A stretch of 64,000 nucleotides of DNA from positions 186,001 to 250,000 of the forward strand of contig NZ_QQXL01000001.1 in assembly GCF_003640665.1 (NCBI RefSeq), given 5' to 3'. Below are positions 6,061-40,309 of the stretch, one piece after another (positions within the stretch are counted from its first letter, which is position 1; each line of letters opens with the position of its first letter). Source of the stretch: Galactobacter caseinivorans (GTDB lineage Bacteria > Actinomycetota > Actinomycetes > Actinomycetales > Micrococcaceae). The notes below the pieces were generated by a model. It did not search any database. It was given only the letters and a program-made list of their open reading frames with translations, and was not told where the DNA came from. The position numbers and the translations under genes were made by a program.

Positions 6061-8282
6061 GCGCGATGGGACCCCGTGGAGCGCTGGCGCTCACGAGCGC
6101 GCAGGAGCGACTCCTGGATGTCCTCCAGGAGCTCTCCATCCGAGCCGCGGTGATGGCGGGTCCACTGACCCTCGGCATCCAGGTGCCAGGAGGACGTCGC
6201 GGGGTCTAGATAACGGTTCAGCAGGGCCACCACATCGCTCTTTTCCTCGTCGTCGCTGAGCGAGACGAGTGCCTCCACGCGGCGGTCAAGGTTGCGGTGC
6301 ATCATGTCCGCTGAGCCGATGTAAACCGTGGAGTCTCCACCGTTGGCGAACGCAAAGACCCGGCTGTGCTCCAGGAAGCGGCCCAGGATGGAGCGCACGC
6401 GGATGTTCTCTGAGAGCCCAGGCACGCCGGGGCGCAGGGAACAGATGCCGCGCACAATCACGTCCACCTTCACGCCTGCCTGCGAGGCGCGGTAGAGGGC
6501 GTCAACGATGGCCTCATCCACCATCGAGTTCACCTTGATGACCACGCGGCCGGCCAGACCGGCGCGCACGTTCTGGATCTCGCGCTCAATCAGGTCAATG
6601 AGCCCGGAGCGCAGGGAACGCGGCGCCACGAGCAGGCGCTTGAACGTGGTCTTTGGCGCGTAGCCAGAGAGCTGGTTGAAGAGCTTGGACACGTCCTCTC
6701 CCACCTGCGGATCGCAGGTGAGCAGGCCAAGGTCCTCGTAGTAGCGCGCGGTGCGCGGGTGGTAGTTGCCCGTGCCGATGTGCACGTAGCGGCGCAGCGT
6801 GTCCCCCTCGCGGCGCACCACCAGGGAGAGCTTGGAGTGGGTCTTGAGCCCCACGATCCCGTAGACCACGTGGACGCCGGCCTGTTCCAACTTGCGGGCC
6901 CAAGAGATGTTGGCCTGCTCGTCAAAGCGCGCCTTGATCTCCACCAGGGCCAAGACCTGCTTGCCTGCCTCGGCGGCGTCGATCAGTGCATCCACGATCG
7001 GGGAGTCGCCGGAGGTGCGGTACAGGGTCTGCTTGATGGCCTGGACCTTGGGGTCAGAGGCCGCCTGCTCAAGGAACGCCTGCACAGAGGTGGAGAAGGA
7101 GTCGTAGGGGTGGTGCAGCAGGATGTCCCGGCGGCGCACCGCCGCGAAGACGTTGGCGGCCTTGGACGTCTCGGATTCGTTGAGGAACCGGGAGGTCTTG
7201 GCGAGGTGCTTGGGGTAGTGCAGCGAGGGGCGGTCGATGGAGGAGATGGCACCAAGGCCGCGCAGATCAAGCGGGGAGGGCAGGGAGAAGACCTCGTCGT
7301 CTTCCACGCCCAACTCTCGCACCAAGAGTTTGCGCACGGAGTCAGAGATGTCATCCGCGATCTCCAAGCGGACGGGCGGGCCAAAGCGGCGGCGCAGCAG
7401 TTCCTTCTCCAATGCCTGGAGCAGGTTCTCTGCGTCGTCCTCCTCTACCTCGAGGTCCTCATTGCGGGTTACGCGGAACGTGTGGTGCTCCACCACGTCC
7501 ATGCCGGGGAAGAGCAGGTCGAGGTGCTCACCGATCAGGTCCTCCAGCGTCACAAACCTGGCCGGGGAAGCGGACGAGTGGCCCGCTCGCGGGCCGTCGA
7601 CGGAGACCAGGCGCGGCAGGGCGTCCGGCACCTTCACGCGGGCAAAGAGCTGCTTGCCGGTCAGTGGGTTCTGCACCAAGACGGCCAGGTTCAGGGAGAG
7701 GCCGGAGATGTAGGGGAAGGGGTGGGCCGGATCCACGGCCAGCGGGGTCAGGATCGGGAACACCTGGCGGCGGAACCACGCGTGGAGCCGTTCGCGATCC
7801 GCCTCCTCTAGCTGATCCCAGCGCACAATCGAGATGTTTTCCTTGGCAAGGGCCGGGCGCACCAGCTCGGCAAAGGCCGCTGCGTGGCGCACCTGGAGCT
7901 CGTGCGCACGGTTCAGGATGCTTTCCAACTGATCGGTGGGGTTCAGGCCCGCGGCGCTGGGGACCGCGATGTCCGCGACGATGCGCCGCTTCAATCCGGC
8001 CACGCGGACCATGAAGAACTCGTCCAGGTTGGAGGCAAAGATGGAGAGGAAGTTGACGCGCTCCAGCAGGAACAGATCCGGGTCCTCTGCCAGCTCAAGC
8101 ACGCGGGCGTTGAAGTCCAGCCAGCTCATCTCGCGATCCAGGAAGCGATCAAGCGAGAAGCCGCCCTCCGGCTCGGCCGCCGGCGCAAACTCTGGCAGTT
8201 CGATGCGATCGACCGTCGCCTTGGACGGCGTGACGTCGCGGTCGCCGTAATTGGGCGGCGTCGGGATTGAGCTCGTGTCCAC
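6057..8282 (-). CDS. ppk: Polyphosphate kinase
   Basis: Reversibly polymerises the terminal phosphate of ATP into polyphosphate. The 741-residue protein shows the N-terminal helical domain ([38 protein letters not shown]). The catalytic block has the autophosphorylated His in [14 protein letters not shown] and the second His region [21 protein letters not shown]. The start is GTG with AGGAGG six nucleotides upstream. A ~25-residue N-terminal extension precedes the family start, and the C-terminus is Arg/Ser-rich. It is coupled to mutT1, which hydrolyses nucleotide polyphosphates. Confidence 0.97.
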
Positions 8283-8463
8283 CGGGTCCTCCTGTGAAGG
8301 GGCGTGCGTGGCGAAAAGTCCGGGGGAGCGGACCAGGCGCCTGGGGCGTGAGAGGGAAGTTAGGAAAGAGCAGAGGTACTGAGGTGTGTTCGCCAGGGTC
8401 GCAGATTCCAGAAGGGTCAGCGACCGGCGGCCTCAACGACCACGCTGTCGAACAAGCTGTGAC

Positions 8464-9450
8464 CTAGTTTAGTCGGGCCGGACGCGCGTACATCACATCC
8501 GCGTCCCAGCGCTCAAAGCCGAGTCGGCGGTACAACGCCACGGCCGCCTCATTGTCGGCGTCGACGTAGAGCATGACGTGCTCCAGGCCGCGGCTGGCCA
8601 GGTGCCGCAGCCCTGCGACGGTGAGTGCCTTCCCGAGGCCCTTGCCCTGGGCCAACGGGGAGATGCCGACGGCGTAGACCTCGCCCACAGCCTCGCTGGA
8701 TTGGCCCCGGGCGTCCTGGGCGGCCGGGTGCACCTTGGTCCAGTGAAAGCCCAGCACTGTGTCCGCCGCATCCACGGCCAGGAGAAAGCCGGCCGGGTCA
8801 AACCAGTCGCTGCGCTCGCGTTCTAGCAGGTCATTGAGCGTCATGCGGCCCTGCTCTGGGTGGTGGGCAAAGGCTGCGGCGTTGATTTCCAACCAGGCCT
8901 GCTCGTCGCGTCCCGGTTCAAAGGCGCGCAGTCGCACGCCTTCTGGTAGCGGCGCCTCGTCGACGTCTTGGGCGGCCTTGCGGCGCATGCGCCACAGATC
9001 GCGGACCGGGACCAGCCCGTGGCGTTGGGCCAGCTGCGCGGCGGCGCGGTCGTCGCCGTGGGACCAAGCCTCCACAGCGGCGTCGCCCATGGCCGTCTCG
9101 AGGTGCGCTGCCAGCTCGCCGCCGAGCCCCCGGCCGCGATTCTCCGGCCTGACGACCATCTCAATCACCGTGGGGGAGTCCGGTGCGGAACTCAGCACGG
9201 CGGCGCCGGCTACCTCCGCGTCGTTGTGTTGGGGGCCGGCAACAAAGACGGCCAGCACGCCGCCCACGGAGTCGGCGTCCTCCGCGGTGCGCAGTTGCAC
9301 CCACGTCTGTTCGTTAAAGGGTGGGTTCCCGTCCGCTTCCTCGCTGGCGCGGGCCAGCTGAGCAAGCGCCTCAAGCACGGAGTCGGAGGGGCGGCCGCGA
9401 AAGGACTGGAGGCTCCACTCGCGTTGGGCGGAAGCGGGGTTCTGGCTCAT
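8464..9450 (-). CDS. mshD: Mycothiol synthase
   Basis: Transfers acetyl from acetyl-CoA to Cys-GlcN-Ins, the last step of mycothiol synthesis, so the organism uses mycothiol as its low-molecular-weight thiol. The 328-residue protein has two GNAT domains. The N-terminal one is degenerate; the C-terminal one carries GEVYAVGISPLAQGKGLGKA and the characteristic VMLYVDADNEAAVALYRRLG. TACGGT lies 6 nt before the ATG, and the only purine-rich stretch (GGAGG) is too close to act as a Shine–Dalgarno, so a leaderless message is likely. The mshD–glnR neighbourhood is shared with mycobacteria. Confidence 0.94.
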   Translation of the reverse strand: MSQNPASAQREWSLQSFRGRPSDSVLEALAQLARASEEADGNPPFNEQTWVQLRTAEDADSVGGVLAVFVAGPQHNDAEVAGAAVLSSAPDSPTVIEMVVRPENRGRGLGGELAAHLETAMGDAAVEAWSHGDDRAAAQLAQRHGLVPVRDLWRMRRKAAQDVDEAPLPEGVRLRAFEPGRDEQAWLEINAAAFAHHPEQGRMTLNDLLERERSDWFDPAGFLLAVDAADTVLGFHWTKVHPAAQDARGQSSEAVGEVYAVGISPLAQGKGLGKALTVAGLRHLASRGLEHVMLYVDADNEAAVALYRRLGFERWDADVMYARPARLN

Positions 9451-9456
9451 GCCTCC

Positions 9457-9462
9457 ACCGTA
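9457..9462 (-). promoter_or_regulatory. −10 element TACGGT of mshD, leaderless start
   Basis: TACGGT on the minus strand ends 6 nt from the mshD ATG. The spacing equals that seen at asd and the 39-residue membrane peptide gene. Confidence 0.4.
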
Positions 9463-9578
9463 GCCCGCAGCGGCTCCGCGGCCCAGAGGAAGACCGGTGG
9501 CTCAGCACATAGCGCAAGAGCAACGGCCCAAGAGAAGCCGGCTGCCTCACTCAGCAGTTGGCGTCCCGGCGCTGCGAA

Positions 9579-10271
9579 CTACGCGCCTGCTTCGTCCTGC
9601 GGCGCCGCGTCGGCCGCACTGAAGCGATATCCCACGTTGCGCACGGTGCCAATGAGCTGCTCGTGATCTGATCCGAGCTTGGCGCGCAGGCGGCGCACGT
9701 GCACGTCCACGGTGCGGGTCCCGCCAAAGTAGTCATAGCCCCACACCTCCTGGAGCAACGCCTCGCGTGTGAACACGCGGCCCGGATGTGCGGCCAGGTA
9801 CTTCAGTAGCTCAAATTCCTTGAAGGTGAGGTTGAGGGTGCGGCCCGCCACCTTGGCTGTGTAGGAGTCCTCGTCGATGAAGACGCCGTGGACCTTGATG
9901 CGCACCGGGCCGGGCTCTGGCTCGTCGCGGTGCCGACTAGCCAGACGCAACCGTGCCTCCACCTCAGCCGGGCTCGCCCCACTGAGCATGACGTCGTCGG
10001 CTCCCCACTGCGGGCCGACGGCCGCCATGCCGCCCTCGGTCAGAACCAGCAGAACGGGCGTGCTGACGCGCAGCGTTGCGGCGGATTGGCACAGGGAGCG
10101 CGCGCCGACCAGGTCCTGGCGGGCGTCGATCAGCATCACGTCGGCCGGTTTGGCCAGCGATGAGGGCTCCGGCCTGGCCAGCTCAACCTCGTGGCCCAGC
10201 AAATCGAGGGAGGGCAAAACGGCGGGAATACCGGGCGCGAGCGTGAGTAGCAAGACGTGCGCCACGTGCAC
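9579..10271 (-). CDS. glnR: GlnR-like orphan response regulator, winged-helix
   Basis: A 230-residue OmpR-family protein. The N-terminal ~110 residues form an atypical receiver domain ([38 protein letters not shown]). The C-terminal domain (residues ~125–215) is a winged helix with [38 protein letters not shown] and [14 protein letters not shown]. The order and wording match actinobacterial GlnR, the global nitrogen regulator, and in mycobacteria glnR also neighbours mshD. No sensor kinase gene is adjacent, as expected for GlnR. The start is GTG at 10271 or GTG at 10265; the latter has better spacing from a GAAAG box. Confidence 0.85.
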
Positions 10272-10491
10272 TCACTTTCGCCGGGAGGCCAGATCCGTGC
10301 GCTGGTGCGCCGGTGGCCTCAGCTTACGCAATGGCGTGTTCCGGCCGCGTTTCTGGGGCGGCCTGCGCTGCTTTGTGTCACGCGCAAAGGTGCGCGGCGC
10401 CGGGGGTGGCCCGGGCGTCAGCCCAGACGTCGGCGCGGCCGAGGTTCCCAGCCTGGGCAGGCGCCGGTGGCGCATGCGGCAGGATGGACCC

Positions 10492-11214
10492 GTGAGGATC
10501 CCCACGTTTTTACTTAGTGCCCTAGCCGCCGTTGTTGTCCTGGCGGTGCCCTTTGCGTTGCCGGAACAGCTCTTCACGGGGGGTGTGGTGGTGGTTGTGG
10601 CGCTGCTGACGGCCACGGTCAGCGCGCTGTTCCCCCGCATCACCGGCCTTGGTGCGCCCCTGGCGGTCTCCTGTGTGCTGGCGCTGAGCGGCGGCACGGC
10701 GATCGCCACCACCGTGCTTGCTCCTGCGCCGCTGCGCTTGCTGTGGTGGGCGGTGGTGCTTGGCTTCACGGTGCTGGCGCTCTTCCTGGTGCAGCTGTTG
10801 CGCGGGACCGGCGCGCAGGATCGCGTGACGTCTGTGGCCACCGCGATCGCGGGCGCGTTCATGGTGGATTCGAGCGCCGGGTGGGTCGCTTGGTACCTGG
10901 ACCTCTCGCGGGGCATGGATGGATGGCGCCCCGCGGCGTGGCTCTGCGCTGGGGTGGGCGTGCTGCTGGCTTTGGCGGTGGCGTGGGCGCTGAACCGGCG
11001 GGTGGACTCGGGCTGGGGCGCCCCGGAGCCCAGCGCCACACGCGCCAGATCCGGTCGCCGGGCCTCGCGCGCGGGTTCGCCTCGCATGGCGCCTGCCACA
11101 CTGCCCGACGCCGCTGCGGAGCCGGGAGCGCTGCTCTCTGTCGGTTCTGCGCTGACTGCTGTGCTCGCGATAGGGCTGGTGCTAGATCTCATTGCGCGCC
11201 CACTACTGGGTTGA
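10492..11214 (+). CDS. Actinobacterial membrane protein of unknown function
   Basis: A 240-residue protein with about five hydrophobic segments (residues ~5–60 as two or three, ~75–105, ~120–140, ~145–168 and a last one at ~215–238). A Pro/Arg/Ala-rich cytoplasmic loop (RARSGRRASRAGSPRMAPATL) separates the fourth and last. The GTG start was chosen because a much longer upstream extension would overlap divergent glnR and lacks membrane character. A CAGGAT hexamer lies 6 nt before the GTG and no Shine–Dalgarno is visible. The loop DNA carries a dispersed 12-mer copy (11102–11113). No family was recognised. Confidence 0.75.
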   Translation: MRIPTFLLSALAAVVVLAVPFALPEQLFTGGVVVVVALLTATVSALFPRITGLGAPLAVSCVLALSGGTAIATTVLAPAPLRLLWWAVVLGFTVLALFLVQLLRGTGAQDRVTSVATAIAGAFMVDSSAGWVAWYLDLSRGMDGWRPAAWLCAGVGVLLALAVAWALNRRVDSGWGAPEPSATRARSGRRASRAGSPRMAPATLPDAAAEPGALLSVGSALTAVLAIGLVLDLIARPLLG

Positions 11215-11219
11215 GCAGT

Positions 11220-11225
11220 TAGGAT
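11220..11225 (+). promoter_or_regulatory. −10 element TAGGAT of the small membrane peptide gene
   Basis: TAGGAT followed by 6 nt and an ATG; it lies only 5 nt past the stop of the previous gene. It fits the leaderless pattern seen at asd and mshD, but the overlapping purines could also serve as a weak Shine–Dalgarno. Confidence 0.4.
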
Positions 11226-11231
11226 GGCGGC

Positions 11232-11351
11232 ATGCATGGTGAATTCTTGGGCCTCGAGATCTTCTTCTACTGCCTCCTCGGCATCGCCGGGTTGGCCATG
11301 GCTGGCTTTGCCGCCTTGGTGATTGGCAAGCTGTTCAAGGGCCAGAAGTAG
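11232..11351 (+). CDS. Single-span 39-residue membrane peptide
   Basis: A short gene of 40 codons including the stop. It begins MHGEFLGLEIFFYCLLGIAG, continues with a second apolar stretch (LAMAGFAALVIGKLF) and ends KGQK. One or two hydrophobic helices with a Lys-rich C-terminal end predict a small inner-membrane peptide with its tail in the cytoplasm. It sits 17 nt after the preceding membrane protein gene and 11 nt before the nitrobindin-like gene, in the same direction. Its position ahead of the nitrobindin/YgfZ pair suggests a conserved small protein, but no function is known to me. Confidence 0.65.
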   Translation: MHGEFLGLEIFFYCLLGIAGLAMAGFAALVIGKLFKGQK

Positions 11352-33651: not shown

Positions 33652-34842
<1,191 letters not shown>

Positions 34843-34890
34843 TGCTCGCCCTCACGGGCAAGTAATTGCTGGACGCTAGCCGTCTAGTTG

Positions 34891-34922
34891 AAGGGGGCTC
34901 GGCATTGCGCCGGGCCCCCTTT
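34891..34922 (+). terminator. Terminator after tuf
   Basis: AAGGGGGCTCGGC-ATTGC-GCCGGGCCCCCTT is a 13-bp stem with one G·U, followed by T. It ends the str operon. Confidence 0.85.
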
Positions 34923-35063
34923 GGCGTGCCGTCTGGAGTGTGGGACGCAGCTATCCACAGCCAAGAAGAGGGGGCGCTCAGCGGGGGAGTTGTGGGGTAA
35001 GCTCATCTGTATATCCACTCGGTGGATTTACTAGCGCTTCGGCGAAGGGGGTGTCCCACGATC

Positions 35064-38000
35064 ATGTTCTTCTCTTGGATAGTGTTGCTCGTTGGTGTGG
35101 TGCTGATCTGTGTCGGCTCAAGCCGCATGAGCGCCGGCAAGGCGGCACTGAAGGCGGCGCAGGATCAGTTCAACGACGCCTACCTTCGCGGCTTCCGCGC
35201 GGGCTCAGAGTCGGCGCGCGGGCCGGGTGCGGACCAGCAGGTGCGCGGGCAGCGGCCCGCCCCCACCATCATGCGCCCTCTGCCGGCGCCCCCGGGCCCG
35301 GGGCAACAGGGCCCAGTGCCTCCCAGCATGCCGGTTCAGCGAGCCCCCGGCCTGGGGTCCGCGTTGGGTGCCGCGCCCGCTTCGGCGCTGCGGCCCCCTG
35401 CGTTCTCGGGCCAGGCGTTGCCGGGCCAAGCGATGCCGGGCCAGGCGTTGCCGGGCCAGGCGTTGCCGACCCACGCGGGCCAGGCCTCCCCGCAACTGCA
35501 CGTGCCAGCGCCGGCGCGCAAGGCGCCGGTAGATCGCCGCGCGGTGCTTATCAATGTCGTCCTTGGCGCGGCCACCTTCTTGCTGGTCGTGGCTGCGGGA
35601 CTGTGGGTCGGCACCCGGCTTGACCCCATCGGCCAGGGTGTCGCCCTCATGGCACTTTCTGCGGCCTTCTACGCCGCCGGGCTCGTGCTGCATCAGCGCC
35701 AGCCCCGCCTGCGGCCGGTGGCGTTGGCCTTCTCCATCTCCGGACTGGCCCTGTTGCCCATCGTGGGCGTGGCCTGGTGGGTGCAGTTCCCGGAACAGGG
35801 ACCGGCCGCGTGGCTCGTGGTGTCCGCCGTGGGCACCGTGGCGTACCTCTTTGCCGCCGTTCGTCTCGATTCCAGGGTGGTGGCTGCCTTGGGTGTGGTC
35901 TTTGCCGCCTCCGGTGCCTTCACCTTCGGCGCGGCGATGCGCAGCGGCATCGCCTGGTATGCCGCCAGCTCCACCCTGCTCGCCGTCCTCCTCTCTCTGG
36001 TCGCCACACGGTGGGCACATCGTCTGCCCCGAGTGCTCCATCAGACGTTTGTGGTGGCCCACCGGTTGCTGGTGCCGAGCTACCTTGCCGTGGCCCTCTG
36101 TGTCTTCCCGTGGTTGAGGGCACAAGACTCCCTGATCATCACCGCATCCGCGCTCCTCTACTACGTGGTCCAGCGACTTCTGGCGCCGCAGCGCGACCGC
36201 AGCCTGACTCGGTGGGGTGCGCGGGCGGCGTCGATCGGTGTGGTGCTTTCCGCCGGAGCGGTGGCAGAGCTGCCAGGCAACGTCATGCTGCGCTGCGCCG
36301 CCGTCGCGGTGGTGCTGGTGGCAGGCCAGTCGGTGTGGGCTCTGCGCCGCGATGGTGTGTCCTTCGCCCGGACGACGGCGCCCGGCACGACCACACCAGG
36401 GGCGCTGGCCTGGGCAGAGCGGGGAGAAAGCCGCCGGACGCCCGCCATCCTGATGTCTGTCGCCGCGGCCTTCGCCCTGTGTGGGACGGAGGTGGGACAG
36501 CACGTCCCCAGGGCAAGCGCCGCGTCCTTCCTGGACGTCTCACTCAACTGGAGCTGGTACCTGGTCTTGGCCGGCGTGGTGGTGTTCACCCTCGTGAAGG
36601 CGATGTCCCCGGCCCTCCCCGTCTTGTGGCGGATGATCCTGCTTGGGGGCGCCACGCTGGGTGCCGTCATTGAGCCTGCCTCCTCGCGGCCGTGGGCAGG
36701 GGCCTTCCTCCTGTTCGCCGTCGCGCTGGTGTCCGCGCTGCAGTGGTCCAGGGAATCGGGTGCAGCGTGGCGGACCGGCTTCGGAGCCCTGGCGCTCGGC
36801 GCGGGCCTGGGGTCCTCCGGGCCGCTCGCCGCTGACCTGGCGGTGACCCTGGGAGCCAGCGACGCCCTGCGCGGCAACGTGATGAGCCTGGTCTGGGCGG
36901 TGGGCGCGCTGGGTCTAGGCACCTGGCGCGCGGCGGTGGCCGTGAGCCAACGCAGCGAGACCCGGGGAGGCCGGTTCCACTGGGGCGCAGGCGCGCTGCT
37001 GTCCGCCGCGGTGGGCGCAGGAAGCAGCCTGGCGGTGGACTGGCGCGCGGCCTCACCGCGTGGCGGACGCGTGGGGGCGCACGGCTTGACCTTTGACGCG
37101 TTCGGTCAGCATCCGGACCCCCTGGCCGTGACCGGTGTGATGGTGGCGATCCTGGCGCTGGCCGTGGCCACGGTGGCTGCCACCCAGCTCTTCTTGGCAA
37201 GGGGGGCGCTGCGTCAGCACCTGCCAGGTCAGCAACTGCCAGGCCAGCAACTGCCGGGCGAGAACGCCACCGAACCGGCGCCCTACACCCTGGCTCCTTT
37301 TGCACTGGCTCCTTTTGCCCTGGCCGCCCCGGCCGTAGTGCTGGGCGCGGTGGTGGGCGGCGCGGGCGACCGTGTGCTCGTGGTGCTGGTGGCCTACCTG
37401 TGTGCAGCCGGGCTCTGTGTGGCCGGTTCACAGGTCTGGGGGAGGAGCTGGAGCGCCCTCGGTGCCACTGCCGCGCTGTTGATGGGCCAATGGCAGGTGC
37501 TCTCCATGACCGACGCTCCGGGCGTGGTGGTTCTGCCCATCACGGCGGCGATTCTGCTGGCGGGAACCGTCGTGGCCACCACCGGCCCGCGCGCTAGCTG
37601 GGCCCGGGTGGTCAGCGCGAGCGTTGCGGGCGCGCTGATACTTGGACCCTGGGCGGAGGCCCTGCGGACACGCCTCGCGATCTCCGCGGATGCCGTGCAA
37701 CCGGTGGCCTTTACCTTGTTGCTCCTGCTGGCGGTCGCAGCCGTGCTCTGGCACGCGCGGGTGGCGCGCCAACTGGGAACGCCAGTGGCCGGGGTCTCCG
37801 TGGCGCTGCTTGCAGTGGGGCTCACCGCGCTGCGTGCCGTTGATGGGCAGTGGAGCTGGTGGTGGGGATCGCAGGTGCTGAGCGCCTACCCGGCCACCGA
37901 GCTCGTGTTCTCTTGGGCCGCACCGGCGTTGGTGCTCCTCGCCGGGGCGTCCGTCAAGCTGTGGACGCGTCATTGCACCCGGCTGGGTCAGGCCAGCGCC

Positions 38001-39584
38001 TGGGCCACCGCGGCCCTTCTGCTGCCGGCATTCCTTCTGGGACCCACAGTGCTGGCACACCAGGAGGGTGGGCTGTTGATGTTGATCGGCGCCGTGCTTG
38101 GCGCCCAGGCGTTCGCCGCGCGCTCCCTCGCCTTGCGCTCCGCTCAGACGCCGGGAAGCGTGCTCCTGCTCTCCACCAGCCGGATGATGCCGGTCCCCGC
38201 CGCCGGCGCCCTGCTGTGCGGCGTCTGCATCAGCATCATGGGGCAGACCCCGCTGTGGCTGGGATGGATTGCCGCCGCCGCAGTGGCGGTGAGCGCGATT
38301 CCCGCGATGTGGGCGGGCCAGCACGTGGCGTCGAATGCGGGGGGAGCGCCGGGCCACGGGGGATACCGGCGCACCTTCCGCCGCCACGGCGACGACGTGA
38401 TCAGCGTCGCGGCCCCCTTCCTGAGCCTGATCATCCTGGGGGCGGTCGTGGTTGCCGGGCCGGGAGTCACCGTGTTGGCCACGGCCGCCGCGCTGGCCTA
38501 CCTCTTCCTCGCCGCCACGCGAGCCGCGTGGTGGATGGGCCTGCTCGCCTTTGGCGCCACCGCCTGCGCGGCGGTTCAGGCGGTGCTTGACCTCTCCGTC
38601 GGCGCGCAAGAACCACGATCGTGGATCCTGGTCCACGCGGTGCTATTGGCGCTGCTGCCCGCGGTGCTCACCCGCCGCGTCGCCATGCGGGGACGTGTTT
38701 CGGCAGTGGAATCCCAGCTTCACCGCGGGGCGGGGTGGGTGGCGGCCGGCCTCCTGACGCTTGGCGCCGTGACCGGGCTGGCCGCGGGTCACGACCCGGC
38801 GTGGCTGGCATGGGCCGTGGTGGCGGATCTGGTGCTCGCCTCCCAGGCGTCATGGTTACTGCTGCGTTCCAAGGACCAGCAGCGCCTCCACTCGGTGGTG
38901 GACGCCGGGATGGCCCTTGCCGCCCTCGCCGTGGTGCGTGCGGCCGCCGTGGAGGGGGACCTCCGGGTGGCACCCTTCTGGTTCTTGGTGGTCCTGGCGG
39001 CAGTCCTGATCGGCACCGCCTGGTGGCGCAGGGCGCACAAGCCCTCCCAGCAACTGCGCGCGTGGTCCGCCGCGGCGATGCTGACGCTTGCGCTCTTCAC
39101 GGTGGTGCTCGGCACCACCGGAACGGACGAGGAGTGGGCGCGTCACGCGGTGCTGGTGGCACTCTTTGCCCTGCTCCTGGTGACGGGCGCGGCGTTCGAC
39201 GACGCTGCAGCCACCTGGATTGGCCTGGCGGGCCTGTGCGTGGACGTACTCGTCGCAGCGCGCCACCAGACAGTCGCCATGCTCTTCCTCCTCGCCGTGA
39301 TGCTCTTCGGCATCGCCACCTGGCTCCTGCTGCGCAAGAGCCGCCAGGCCCAGCACCAGGCCGCCCGCCCGCCAGTGGGGCCGCCACTCCCGCCGAACCA
39401 AGGGCTCCGGCAGGAGCAGGCACCCGTGCAGCGGCCGAGCCTGGGAGGGGCCATGGGCCAGGCAGTGCCACCACAAAGCCAGGCCGTCCCGCCGAACGGA
39501 CACCAGCCGTCGCTTCGCCGGGTCCAGCCCAACAGGCCGGGCCCTGCCAACCCGCCCCCACCGGCGTCGGGCAGAGAAGACTAA
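35064..39584 (+). CDS. Giant polytopic membrane protein (1506 aa), unknown
   Basis: A single membrane helix at residues 2–20 is followed by a ~135-residue Pro/Gln-rich linker containing LPGQA repeats (near 115–138). About forty hydrophobic segments then run nearly without soluble domains to residue ~1440, and a Pro/Gln-rich cytoplasmic tail closes the protein. A loop near 716–755 holds two further repeats (LPGQQ and LAPFA). ATG 35064 is preferred over GTG 35022 because it begins the first membrane helix (MFFSWIVLLVGVVLIC). The architecture recalls DUF2339/DUF2157-like multi-span proteins but no motif confirms this. It is rich in GCG and CGG codons, unlike the ribosomal genes around it. It stands alone between terminators at 34891 and 39601. 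Confidence 0.85.
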   Translation: MFFSWIVLLVGVVLICVGSSRMSAGKAALKAAQDQFNDAYLRGFRAGSESARGPGADQQVRGQRPAPTIMRPLPAPPGPGQQGPVPPSMPVQRAPGLGSALGAAPASALRPPAFSGQALPGQAMPGQALPGQALPTHAGQASPQLHVPAPARKAPVDRRAVLINVVLGAATFLLVVAAGLWVGTRLDPIGQGVALMALSAAFYAAGLVLHQRQPRLRPVALAFSISGLALLPIVGVAWWVQFPEQGPAAWLVVSAVGTVAYLFAAVRLDSRVVAALGVVFAASGAFTFGAAMRSGIAWYAASSTLLAVLLSLVATRWAHRLPRVLHQTFVVAHRLLVPSYLAVALCVFPWLRAQDSLIITASALLYYVVQRLLAPQRDRSLTRWGARAASIGVVLSAGAVAELPGNVMLRCAAVAVVLVAGQSVWALRRDGVSFARTTAPGTTTPGALAWAERGESRRTPAILMSVAAAFALCGTEVGQHVPRASAASFLDVSLNWSWYLVLAGVVVFTLVKAMSPALPVLWRMILLGGATLGAVIEPASSRPWAGAFLLFAVALVSALQWSRESGAAWRTGFGALALGAGLGSSGPLAADLAVTLGASDALRGNVMSLVWAVGALGLGTWRAAVAVSQRSETRGGRFHWGAGALLSAAVGAGSSLAVDWRAASPRGGRVGAHGLTFDAFGQHPDPLAVTGVMVAILALAVATVAATQLFLARGALRQHLPGQQLPGQQLPGENATEPAPYTLAPFALAPFALAAPAVVLGAVVGGAGDRVLVVLVAYLCAAGLCVAGSQVWGRSWSALGATAALLMGQWQVLSMTDAPGVVVLPITAAILLAGTVVATTGPRASWARVVSASVAGALILGPWAEALRTRLAISADAVQPVAFTLLLLLAVAAVLWHARVARQLGTPVAGVSVALLAVGLTALRAVDGQWSWWWGSQVLSAYPATELVFSWAAPALVLLAGASVKLWTRHCTRLGQASAWATAALLLPAFLLGPTVLAHQEGGLLMLIGAVLGAQAFAARSLALRSAQTPGSVLLLSTSRMMPVPAAGALLCGVCISIMGQTPLWLGWIAAAAVAVSAIPAMWAGQHVASNAGGAPGHGGYRRTFRRHGDDVISVAAPFLSLIILGAVVVAGPGVTVLATAAALAYLFLAATRAAWWMGLLAFGATACAAVQAVLDLSVGAQEPRSWILVHAVLLALLPAVLTRRVAMRGRVSAVESQLHRGAGWVAAGLLTLGAVTGLAAGHDPAWLAWAVVADLVLASQASWLLLRSKDQQRLHSVVDAGMALAALAVVRAAAVEGDLRVAPFWFLVVLAAVLIGTAWWRRAHKPSQQLRAWSAAAMLTLALFTVVLGTTGTDEEWARHAVLVALFALLLVTGAAFDDAAATWIGLAGLCVDVLVAARHQTVAMLFLLAVMLFGIATWLLLRKSRQAQHQAARPPVGPPLPPNQGLRQEQAPVQRPSLGGAMGQAVPPQSQAVPPNGHQPSLRRVQPNRPGPANPPPPASGRED
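35408..35468 (+). repeat. 15-bp repeat encoding LPGQA pentapeptides
   Basis: Four tandem copies of GGGCCAGGCGTTGCC with one variant copy (CAAGCGATG), in frame, encoding GQALP/GQAMP units in the N-terminal linker of the giant membrane protein. Confidence 0.85.
37215..37259 (+). repeat. 15-bp repeat encoding LPGQQ pentapeptides
   Basis: Three in-frame copies of a 15-bp unit (CAGCAACTGCCAGGC type) in an extramembrane loop of the giant protein. The sequence is unlike the first repeat at DNA level but gives the same LPGQ core. Confidence 0.75.
37290..37325 (+). repeat. 15-bp repeat encoding LAPFA
   Basis: Two exact-length copies of CTGGCTCCTTTTGC(A/C) plus a partial third, in frame, at the start of a membrane segment of the giant protein. 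It is notable for its T-run against a GC-rich gene. Confidence 0.75.
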
Positions 39585-39600
39585 GCGCCGCTCGCTCTGA

Positions 39601-39641
39601 GTGATGCCGCCGCCAGGCCACCGGCCAGGCGGCGGCATCAC
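39601..39641 (+). terminator. Terminator-like hairpin after the giant gene
   Basis: GTGATGCCGCCGCC/GGCGGCGGCATCAC is a perfect 14-bp stem whose 13-nt loop itself contains GGCC-ACC-GGCC. It starts 17 nt past the stop and has no T-run. Confidence 0.65.
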
Positions 39642-40000
39642 GCGCGTTGGCCGGGCGAAGACGCGGCGACGGATGTGGGATCCGACACCCGAATTGGCGA
39701 ATCCGCGGCAGATCTGCGAGGATAGTCAAGTTGCGCTTGCGCAGATTTGGGTCACGACGCTCCTCCTGACGGAGGGTGAAGATGATCCGAGGAGCCAGAG
39801 CAACCCGATCCCGTAGAAGAGTGTGTCATCCTGCTGTTCTCAACAGCGCGACACGCCCGAGTACGGGGGTCGGAGCCACGGCGGGGCGAGGAACCCGGGA
39901 ATCTTCCCGGATTCGGCTCGTCGGTGGCGTGCCGGTCCGCAAGGGCCCGTTCGGCACCACAACTTACATAGTGCTAACCAAAGAAATGAGGCCAGAAGCC
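39642..40000 (+). other. S10 operon promoter and leader region
   Basis: About 360 nt without a gene. A possible promoter is TTGGCG-N18-GAGGAT (39694–39723). The ~270-nt leader that would follow holds CCGGGAA-TC-TTCCCGG (39895–39910) inside a GAGCC/GGCTC closing pair, and a stem-loop GTGCCG…CGGCAC (39929–39957). Such a leader could be an autoregulatory target, as in other S10 operons. An open frame continuous with rpsJ crosses it but has no ribosomal similarity. Confidence 0.45.
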
Positions 40001-40309
40001 ATGGCGGGACAGAAGATCCGCATCCGGCTGAAGTCGTATGACCACGAGGTCATTGACACGTCCGCCCGCAAGATCGTTGATACGGTCACCCGCGCCGGCG
40101 CGACTGTTGTCGGCCCCGTGCCGCTGCCGACGGAGAAGAACGTGTACTGCGTTATCCGTTCGCCGCACAAGTACAAGGACAGCCGCGAGCACTTCGAGAT
40201 GCGCACCCACAAGCGCCTCATCGACATCGTGGACCCGACTCCGAAGGCCGTTGACTCGCTGATGCGTCTCGACCTGCCGGCGGATGTCAACATCGAAATC
40301 AAGCTCTGA
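40001..40309 (+). CDS. rpsJ: 30S ribosomal protein S10
   Basis: The 102-residue first cistron of the S10 operon, also the NusE antitermination partner of NusB/Nus[18 protein letters not shown] and the loop [20 protein letters not shown] are diagnostic. ATG 40001 is chosen because the family starts at [10 protein letters not shown]; upstream in-frame codons encode no conserved residues. GAGG lies ten nucleotides upstream. Confidence 0.97.

What the first reader, a model, noticed from the sequence alone, without database searches (positions are those of the whole stretch)
34923..39641. 1506-residue, ~40-span membrane protein inserted between tuf and rpsJ
This is the largest gene of the window and the only one of no recognised family in the ribosomal super-cluster. 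It has almost no soluble domain apart from a Pro/Gln-rich N-terminal linker and tail with LPGQ repeats. It is insulated by terminators on both sides, and its codon use is unlike the ribosomal genes around it. The regular succession of short spans with W/P-rich turns looks like an expanded repeat of a smaller membrane unit. It may be an actinobacterial envelope protein of new type.
Basis: partly seen in the sequence, partly recalled or inferred. Interest (0 to 1): 0.6.

Follow-up and report, generated by a model that had tools for sequence, protein, structure and literature searches.

The report
Unnamed giant membrane protein between tuf and rpsJ
A very large bacterial membrane protein that no protein-family database names turns out to be the local copy of a real gene family, usually found at the same spot beside the elongation-factor gene in Arthrobacter-type bacteria and also present in some tiny Saccharibacteria; its closest distant relatives with a known role protect cell membranes from toxin damage.

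Summary
An intact 1506-codon ORF (35064-39584, +) for a protein of about 40 spans lies between tuf and rpsJ, with strong hairpins on both sides and no Pfam, NCBIfam or PDB-sequence match. It is not an orphan. It belongs to a fast-evolving family, uncatalogued here, found in about a third of Micrococcaceae genomes; in 72 of 76 named Micrococcaceae loci the order is tuf>X>rpsJ (the other four are truncated contigs). Relatives occur in one other family of the order (between rplL and rpoB) and in some Saccharibacteria (after dnaK-dnaJ, about 40% identity), but in none of 295 other Actinomycetota sampled. The conserved N-terminal 11-helix block resembles DUF2339 weakly in sequence and EccD tentatively in predicted fold. 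DUF2339 is the family of Arc3A, a 35-span protein that prevents lysophospholipid build-up. My best guess (confidence 0.35) is an Arc3A-like, lipid-holding membrane solenoid that protects membrane integrity. Function is inferred, not shown. Codon use is ordinary for non-ribosomal genes of this window.

The parts
34887..34925 (+). hairpin between tuf and the giant gene (terminator-like)
   Evidence: RNA fold -33.5 kcal/mol, 17-bp stem followed by TTT
35064..39584 (+). giant polytopic membrane protein, 1506 aa, about 40 spans
   Evidence: intact ORF; homologues at the same locus
35064..35126 (+). N-terminal single membrane span (residues 1-21)
   Evidence: hydrophobic stretch followed by basic residues; present in most Micrococcaceae and Saccharibacteria homologues
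35172..35204 (+). short cytoplasmic helix motif NDAYLRGFRAG (residues 37-47)
   Evidence: matches AWQEGYDAG in Micrococcaceae and GYWDGYQA in Saccharibacteria
35205..35534 (+). Pro/Gln-rich linker with LPGQ repeats (residues 48-157)
   Evidence: sequence; variable in relatives
35535..36383 (+). conserved N-terminal membrane block (residues ~158-440), 11 helices
   Evidence: 6 invariant columns in 34 sequences; pLDDT ~90; weak DUF2339 similarity; EccD-like fold match Z 14.0
36063..38165 (+). degenerate ~166-residue repeat region, about four copies (residues ~334-1034)
   Evidence: profile self-comparison, scores up to 72 vs reversed null 32, offsets 166/331/497
39141..39338 (+). conserved C-terminal membrane block (residues ~1360-1425)
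   Evidence: conserved columns L, G, W, A, R in 34-89 sequences
39351..39581 (+). Pro/Gln-rich C-terminal tail
   Evidence: sequence
39601..39642 (+). hairpin after the giant gene
   Evidence: RNA fold -40.1 kcal/mol, no T tract

Best explanation
X is a lineage-specific giant polytopic membrane protein: an N-terminal anchor and short cytoplasmic helix, a flexible Pro-rich linker, a conserved 11-helix membrane block, then a membrane-embedded helical-repeat solenoid and a conserved C-terminal cap. It works like Arc3A (DUF2339). I infer that the repeated hairpins enclose hydrophobic, lipid-lined space that takes up or sequesters aberrant lipids such as lysophospholipids or other membrane-active molecules, and so protects membrane integrity under attack or stress. 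SHOWN: gene reality, family, synteny, conserved ends with a repeat-based variable middle, and lack of enzyme or transporter signatures. INFERRED: solenoid or cavity (prediction), lipid binding, protective role.
For: The family profile aligns to DUF2339 always in the same register (N-terminal block to DUF2339 157-269), with scores 38-75, while reversed, shuffled, SecY and MFS controls are lower (SecY and MFS at most 19.5; for the highest-scoring profile, reversed 44 and shuffled 28). Arc3A (DUF2339, 35 spans, no catalytic residues) prevents lysophospholipid accumulation and protects against phospholipase toxins; divergent homologues complement it (PMC8926400; PMC12663445). AF2 models of the window half and of a whole relative both give an 11-helix N-terminal domain whose best membrane-protein match is EccD of ESX-3 (Z 13-14); EccD3 is itself N-terminal domain, long linker and 11 spans enclosing a lipid-lined cavity (PMC6986878). 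The rest of the relative's model is a repeat solenoid, mostly pLDDT 80-95 from residue 600 on. Internal repeats.
Against: Pfam DUF2339 itself does not match the protein or any gene of this genome. The profile similarity swings with the alignment used (probability 23-94%) and covers only ~110 columns. EccD Z values of 13-14 are within what helical models can reach by chance, and Foldseek finds nothing at E<=0.001. There is no Arc3B, Aas or lipid gene next to it. The family is absent from two near-complete genomes of the same genus, so it is dispensable.
Confidence: 0.35

Rival explanations
1. A structural membrane scaffold: the long repeat solenoid organises or stiffens membrane domains or anchors envelope or division proteins through its N-terminal helix and Pro-rich tails, with no lipid handling.
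For: Length varies freely (about 790-2190 aa) while both ends stay conserved; low-complexity Pro/Gln tails; few conserved polar residues inside the membrane block.
Against: No conserved partner gene was found at the locus; large internal cavities would not be needed.
Confidence: 0.25
2. A transporter, flippase or export channel (possibly EccD-like) of a lipid or envelope precursor.
For: N-terminal domain resembles the EccD 11-span bundle in both models, Z 13-14.
Against: No Pfam or NCBIfam transporter match; no ATPase or ESX gene nearby; no ubiquitin-like domain; the number of spans is variable, unusual for a transporter; Z is within the helical background.
Confidence: 0.15
3. A membrane-embedded enzyme such as a polytopic glycosyltransferase or acyltransferase.
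For: Many-span membrane enzymes of the envelope exist in Actinobacteria (general knowledge).
Against: Invariant residues in 34-89 sequences are F, G, P, W, S, A, L and R, with no conserved acidic or His catalytic set; no family match.
Confidence: 0.05
4. A sensor of membrane stress whose N-terminal cytoplasmic helix signals to a partner, in the way DUF2157-like membrane parts occur in LiaF of the PSP/Lia system.
For: The conserved cytoplasmic GxxxG-like helix motif (AWQEGYDAG, GYWDGYQA) is kept from Micrococcaceae to Saccharibacteria. DUF2157 occurs in LiaF (PMC11237479). Saccharibacteria place the gene after hrcA-grpE-dnaK-dnaJ.
Against: No kinase or regulator partner; no DUF2157 profile match.
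Confidence: 0.15

Closest known systems
DUF2339 (PF10101) / Arc3A of Pseudomonas aeruginosa (PA5114)
   Same: giant polytopic membrane protein (35 spans), no enzymatic residues, variable number of spans; weak profile similarity of the N-terminal membrane block in a fixed register
   Different: no Pfam match; about 40 spans; different N-terminus; no Arc3B, aas or estA neighbour; actinobacterial and Saccharibacteria distribution
Zn-ribbon giants of other families of the order (1224-1694 aa, hit by the DUF2157 model)
   Same: same overall plan: soluble N-terminus, Pro-rich linker, 27-48 spans; C-terminal profile match score 57 vs at most 38 for controls
   Different: N-terminal Zn ribbon instead of a membrane anchor plus AWQEGYDAG helix; N-terminal block not matched (probability about 1%)
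EccD of type VII secretion (ESX-3, 6UMM)
   Same: N-terminal domain, long linker, 11 spans; best membrane-protein structural match in both models (Z 13-14); lipid-lined cavity reported for EccD3
   Different: no ubiquitin-like domain, no ESX genes, about 30 further spans; sequence not compared
Saccharibacteria dnaJ-linked homologues (L238, L239, L259, L263)
   Same: same anchor, helix motif, N-terminal block (about 40% identity to Micrococcaceae members) and C-terminal cap
   Different: 787-1247 aa, middle made of clear 102-104-residue tandem repeats; different locus

Membership tests
tuf-X-rpsJ giant family (defined here) | N-terminal block profile (A2/A4) match | tested here: met
   E 4.6e-77 for the window with A2, which includes it; 2.0e-50 with A4, which does not
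tuf-X-rpsJ giant family (defined here) | lies between tuf and rpsJ, same strand | tested here: met
   (72 of 76 named loci; the other 4 truncated)
DUF2339 / Arc3A | match to PF10101 above its cut-off | tested here: not met
   no match in the protein or the genome
DUF2339 / Arc3A | remote profile similarity of the N-terminal membrane block | tested here: inconclusive
   scores 38-75, probability 23-94% by alignment; SecY and MFS controls at most 19.5
DUF2339 / Arc3A | dozens of spans, no catalytic residues | tested here: met
DUF2339 / Arc3A | prevents lysophospholipid accumulation | not testable with these tools
   needs a knock-out
DUF2157 | match to PF09925 | tested here: not met
   no match in G000; hhalign probability below 1%
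EccD (T7SS) | 11-span fold | tested here: inconclusive
   VIA Z 13-14, within the helical background
EccD (T7SS) | N-terminal ubiquitin-like domain and ESX neighbours | tested here: not met
   N-terminus is an anchor, short helix and Pro-rich linker; neighbours are tuf and rpsJ
Zn-ribbon giants | N-terminal zinc ribbon | tested here: not met
   no CxxC pairs at the N-terminus

The most novel reading that the evidence does not exclude
A previously undescribed family of membrane-embedded alpha-solenoids, grown by repeat duplication, shared by Micrococcaceae and by Saccharibacteria, whose cultured members are epibionts of other bacteria, through ancient lateral transfer, and acting as a lipid-sequestering shield in contests at the cell surface.
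Probability: 0.15. Interest if true: 0.8.

Novelty: new variant of a known kind. Interest (0 to 1): 0.52.

Why it matters
Giant polytopic membrane proteins such as Arc3A are widespread, but how dozens of spans protect a membrane is unknown. This family offers a divergent, repeat-built version at a fixed and easily edited locus in culturable Arthrobacter-type bacteria, with natural presence/absence variation between close relatives, and a simpler form with clean tandem repeats in Saccharibacteria. That makes the lipid-sequestration idea testable, and the patchy sharing between two phyla is a lead on gene exchange between Saccharibacteria and Actinobacteria.

Tried and rejected
Orphan or lineage-unique gene: rejected, homologues found. 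Spurious ORF: rejected by conservation and synteny. Recent foreign island: not supported, GC3 and CAI are those of ordinary genes, and the family sits at this locus in most of the genera that carry it. Ordinary Micrococcales-wide family: rejected, 13 of 198 genomes of the order and 1 of 296 in the phylum sample, the window's own. DUF2157 membership: rejected. A single-sequence genome-contig scan found nothing, and two alignments were too diverse to scan; a closer set worked. Two relatives searches failed on the server. BLAST self-hits gave nothing, probably because of culling, replaced by windowed alignment. Foldseek gave no hit at E<=0.001 for either model. No plasmid copies and no DUF2339 sequences from plasmids to deepen that profile. 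The MFS control was empty, crashed, and redid it. Direction of transfer between Saccharibacteria and Micrococcaceae is not resolved by the tree. The papers search found nothing on a tuf/rpsJ-linked giant protein.

Full report
CHECK OF THE OBSERVATION. The window holds an intact ORF at 35064-39584 (+), 1506 aa. Its flanks are tuf (33652-34842) and rpsJ (ATG at 40001). The stretches on both sides fold into strong hairpins of -33.5 and -40.1 kcal/mol. Its codon adaptation to the ribosomal set is low (0.455), but GC3 is the same (0.84) and ordinary genes of the window also score 0.46-0.6. Composition shifts to 70-72% GC over the gene, which follows from its Ala/Leu/Val/Gly content (first- and second-position GC 0.74 and 0.57). 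LPGQ repeats lie in the N-terminal linker and in one internal loop, not in the tail.

IT IS A FAMILY. Pfam, NCBIfam and PDB sequences give nothing. Within the same taxonomic family, several genera have a 4.3-5.1 kb tuf-rpsJ gap filled by a 1143-1390 aa many-span ORF that aligns with the window protein at both ends. A profile finds it in 36 of 100 genomes, 18 of 32 genera. The named loci are Arthrobacter, Paenarthrobacter, Pseudarthrobacter, Paeniglutamicibacter, Glutamicibacter, Micrococcus, Citricoccus and Sinomonas, so the window is Micrococcaceae (the genus was not identified). In 72 of 76 named loci the order is tuf > X > rpsJ on one strand; the other four are truncated contigs with one neighbour seen. 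Exceptions elsewhere: in one genus (G005, G074) X is inverted, and in G011 it has moved near purF and clpB. In X-less genomes of the same genus (G002, G003) the gap is only ~0.5 kb and keeps a tuf terminator and the rpsJ leader.

DISTRIBUTION. In 198 genomes of the order the family appears only in Micrococcaceae and in one other family (f6), five genomes, there between rplL and rpoB in the opposite orientation (seen directly where both neighbours fall in the fetched stretch). f6 is probably Brevibacteriaceae; that is my inference. In 296 Actinomycetota only the window's genome matched. Relatives also occur in Saccharibacteria: L238 and L239 by name, L259 and L263 by synteny, with 36-38% identity to Micrococcaceae members over the block in A4 and 46 invariant columns there, in genomes of 0.7-0.9 Mb, directly after dnaK-dnaJ in three of them; the fourth contig is too short to show it. 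They are rare there: 5 of 287 genomes. In the tree the window is a long branch inside a Paeniglutamicibacter/Glutamicibacter clade (support 99/72), and the Saccharibacteria position is not resolved. Lateral transfer is likely; its direction is open.

ANATOMY. Both ends are conserved and the middle is variable. In Saccharibacteria the middle is plain tandem repeats of 102-104 residues (score up to 349 against a null of at most 69). The window protein alone shows no membrane repeat above the null, but the Micrococcaceae profile compared with itself gives scores up to 72 (reversed null maximum 32, n=78) with offsets of 166-173, 330-336 and 497-499 columns, i.e. about four degenerate ~166-residue copies.

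STRUCTURE. AF2 of window residues 141-870 gave mean pLDDT 75, with about 90 over the first ~290 modelled residues. AF2 of a whole relative (L039, 1121 aa) gave 79, mostly 80-95 from residue 600 on, with the stretch ~340-580 poor. Foldseek against PDB gave nothing at E<=0.001. VIA-align puts EccD of ESX-3 first or second (Z 14.0, rmsd 5.4, 238 aligned; Z 13.4, rmsd 8.5, 283 aligned), both times over the same N-terminal 11-helix block. Helical models can reach such Z by chance, so this is a lead only. The second half resembles helical-repeat solenoids (7rdr, Z 14.5, rmsd 14).

CLOSEST KNOWN KINDS. hhalign to a DUF2339 alignment made from order-wide hits gives scores 38-75 in one register (family N-terminal block to DUF2339 157-269). 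Controls: reversed at most 44 and shuffled at most 28 against the 75; SecY at most 16 and MFS at most 19.5. Probability varies from 23% to 94% with the alignment. A second known type, Zn-ribbon giants of other families of the order, matches at the C-terminus (57 against at most 38), but not with the larger alignment. DUF2157 is not supported. DUF2339 includes Arc3A, 35 spans, which prevents lysophospholipid accumulation under phospholipase attack and whose divergent homologues complement it (PMC8926400; PMC12663445). EccD3 shows that an 11-span domain behind a long linker can enclose a lipid-lined cavity (PMC6986878).

MECHANISM. Best supported: a membrane-embedded solenoid that holds or shields aberrant lipids, Arc3A-like (0.35). 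Rivals: scaffold (0.25), transporter or EccD-like (0.15), stress sensor (0.15), enzyme (0.05). It works like Arc3A in plan, but formal membership fails on the Pfam test.

VERDICT. A real, uncatalogued, fast-evolving giant membrane protein family with conserved synteny, a supported repeat origin and a surprising occurrence in Saccharibacteria. New variant of a known kind; interest 0.52.

Noticed in passing
L238, L239, L259 (Saccharibacteria loci), positions ~7600-11350: Homologue directly downstream of dnaK-dnaJ in Saccharibacteria, with 102-104-residue tandem membrane repeats in L238, L259 and L263; about 40% identity to Micrococcaceae proteins although nearly all other sampled Actinomycetota lack the family.
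   Followed up: partly
L276-L280 (f6 genomes): In another family of the order the same giant lies between rplL and rpoB, opposite strand: again a gap of the translation supercluster.
   Followed up: partly
L274 (record titled Sporosarcina beigongshangi): Carries a Micrococcaceae-type tuf (92% identity) and a Micrococcaceae giant; the record is probably mislabelled or contaminated.
   Followed up: no
L163-L169: Giant Zn-ribbon plus 27-48-span proteins (1224-1694 aa) in other families of the order, partly hit by DUF2157; look like a parallel unnamed giant family.
   Followed up: partly
L039, L103, L104 downstream of X: A small 3-5-span protein ending LLLxAGPPxxWF lies between X and rpsJ in some genomes (also in X-less L041).
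   Followed up: no
L036 (G011) downstream of tuf: A 2901-aa secreted repeat protein follows tuf in the genome where X has moved away to the purF/clpB region.
   Followed up: no
L121 (G067), L101/L077 (G063), L081/L105 (G051): the genome search reports stop codons within the matched stretch or its frame in some copies; L121 is split into 1005 + 371 aa. Pseudogenes or sequencing errors.
   Followed up: no
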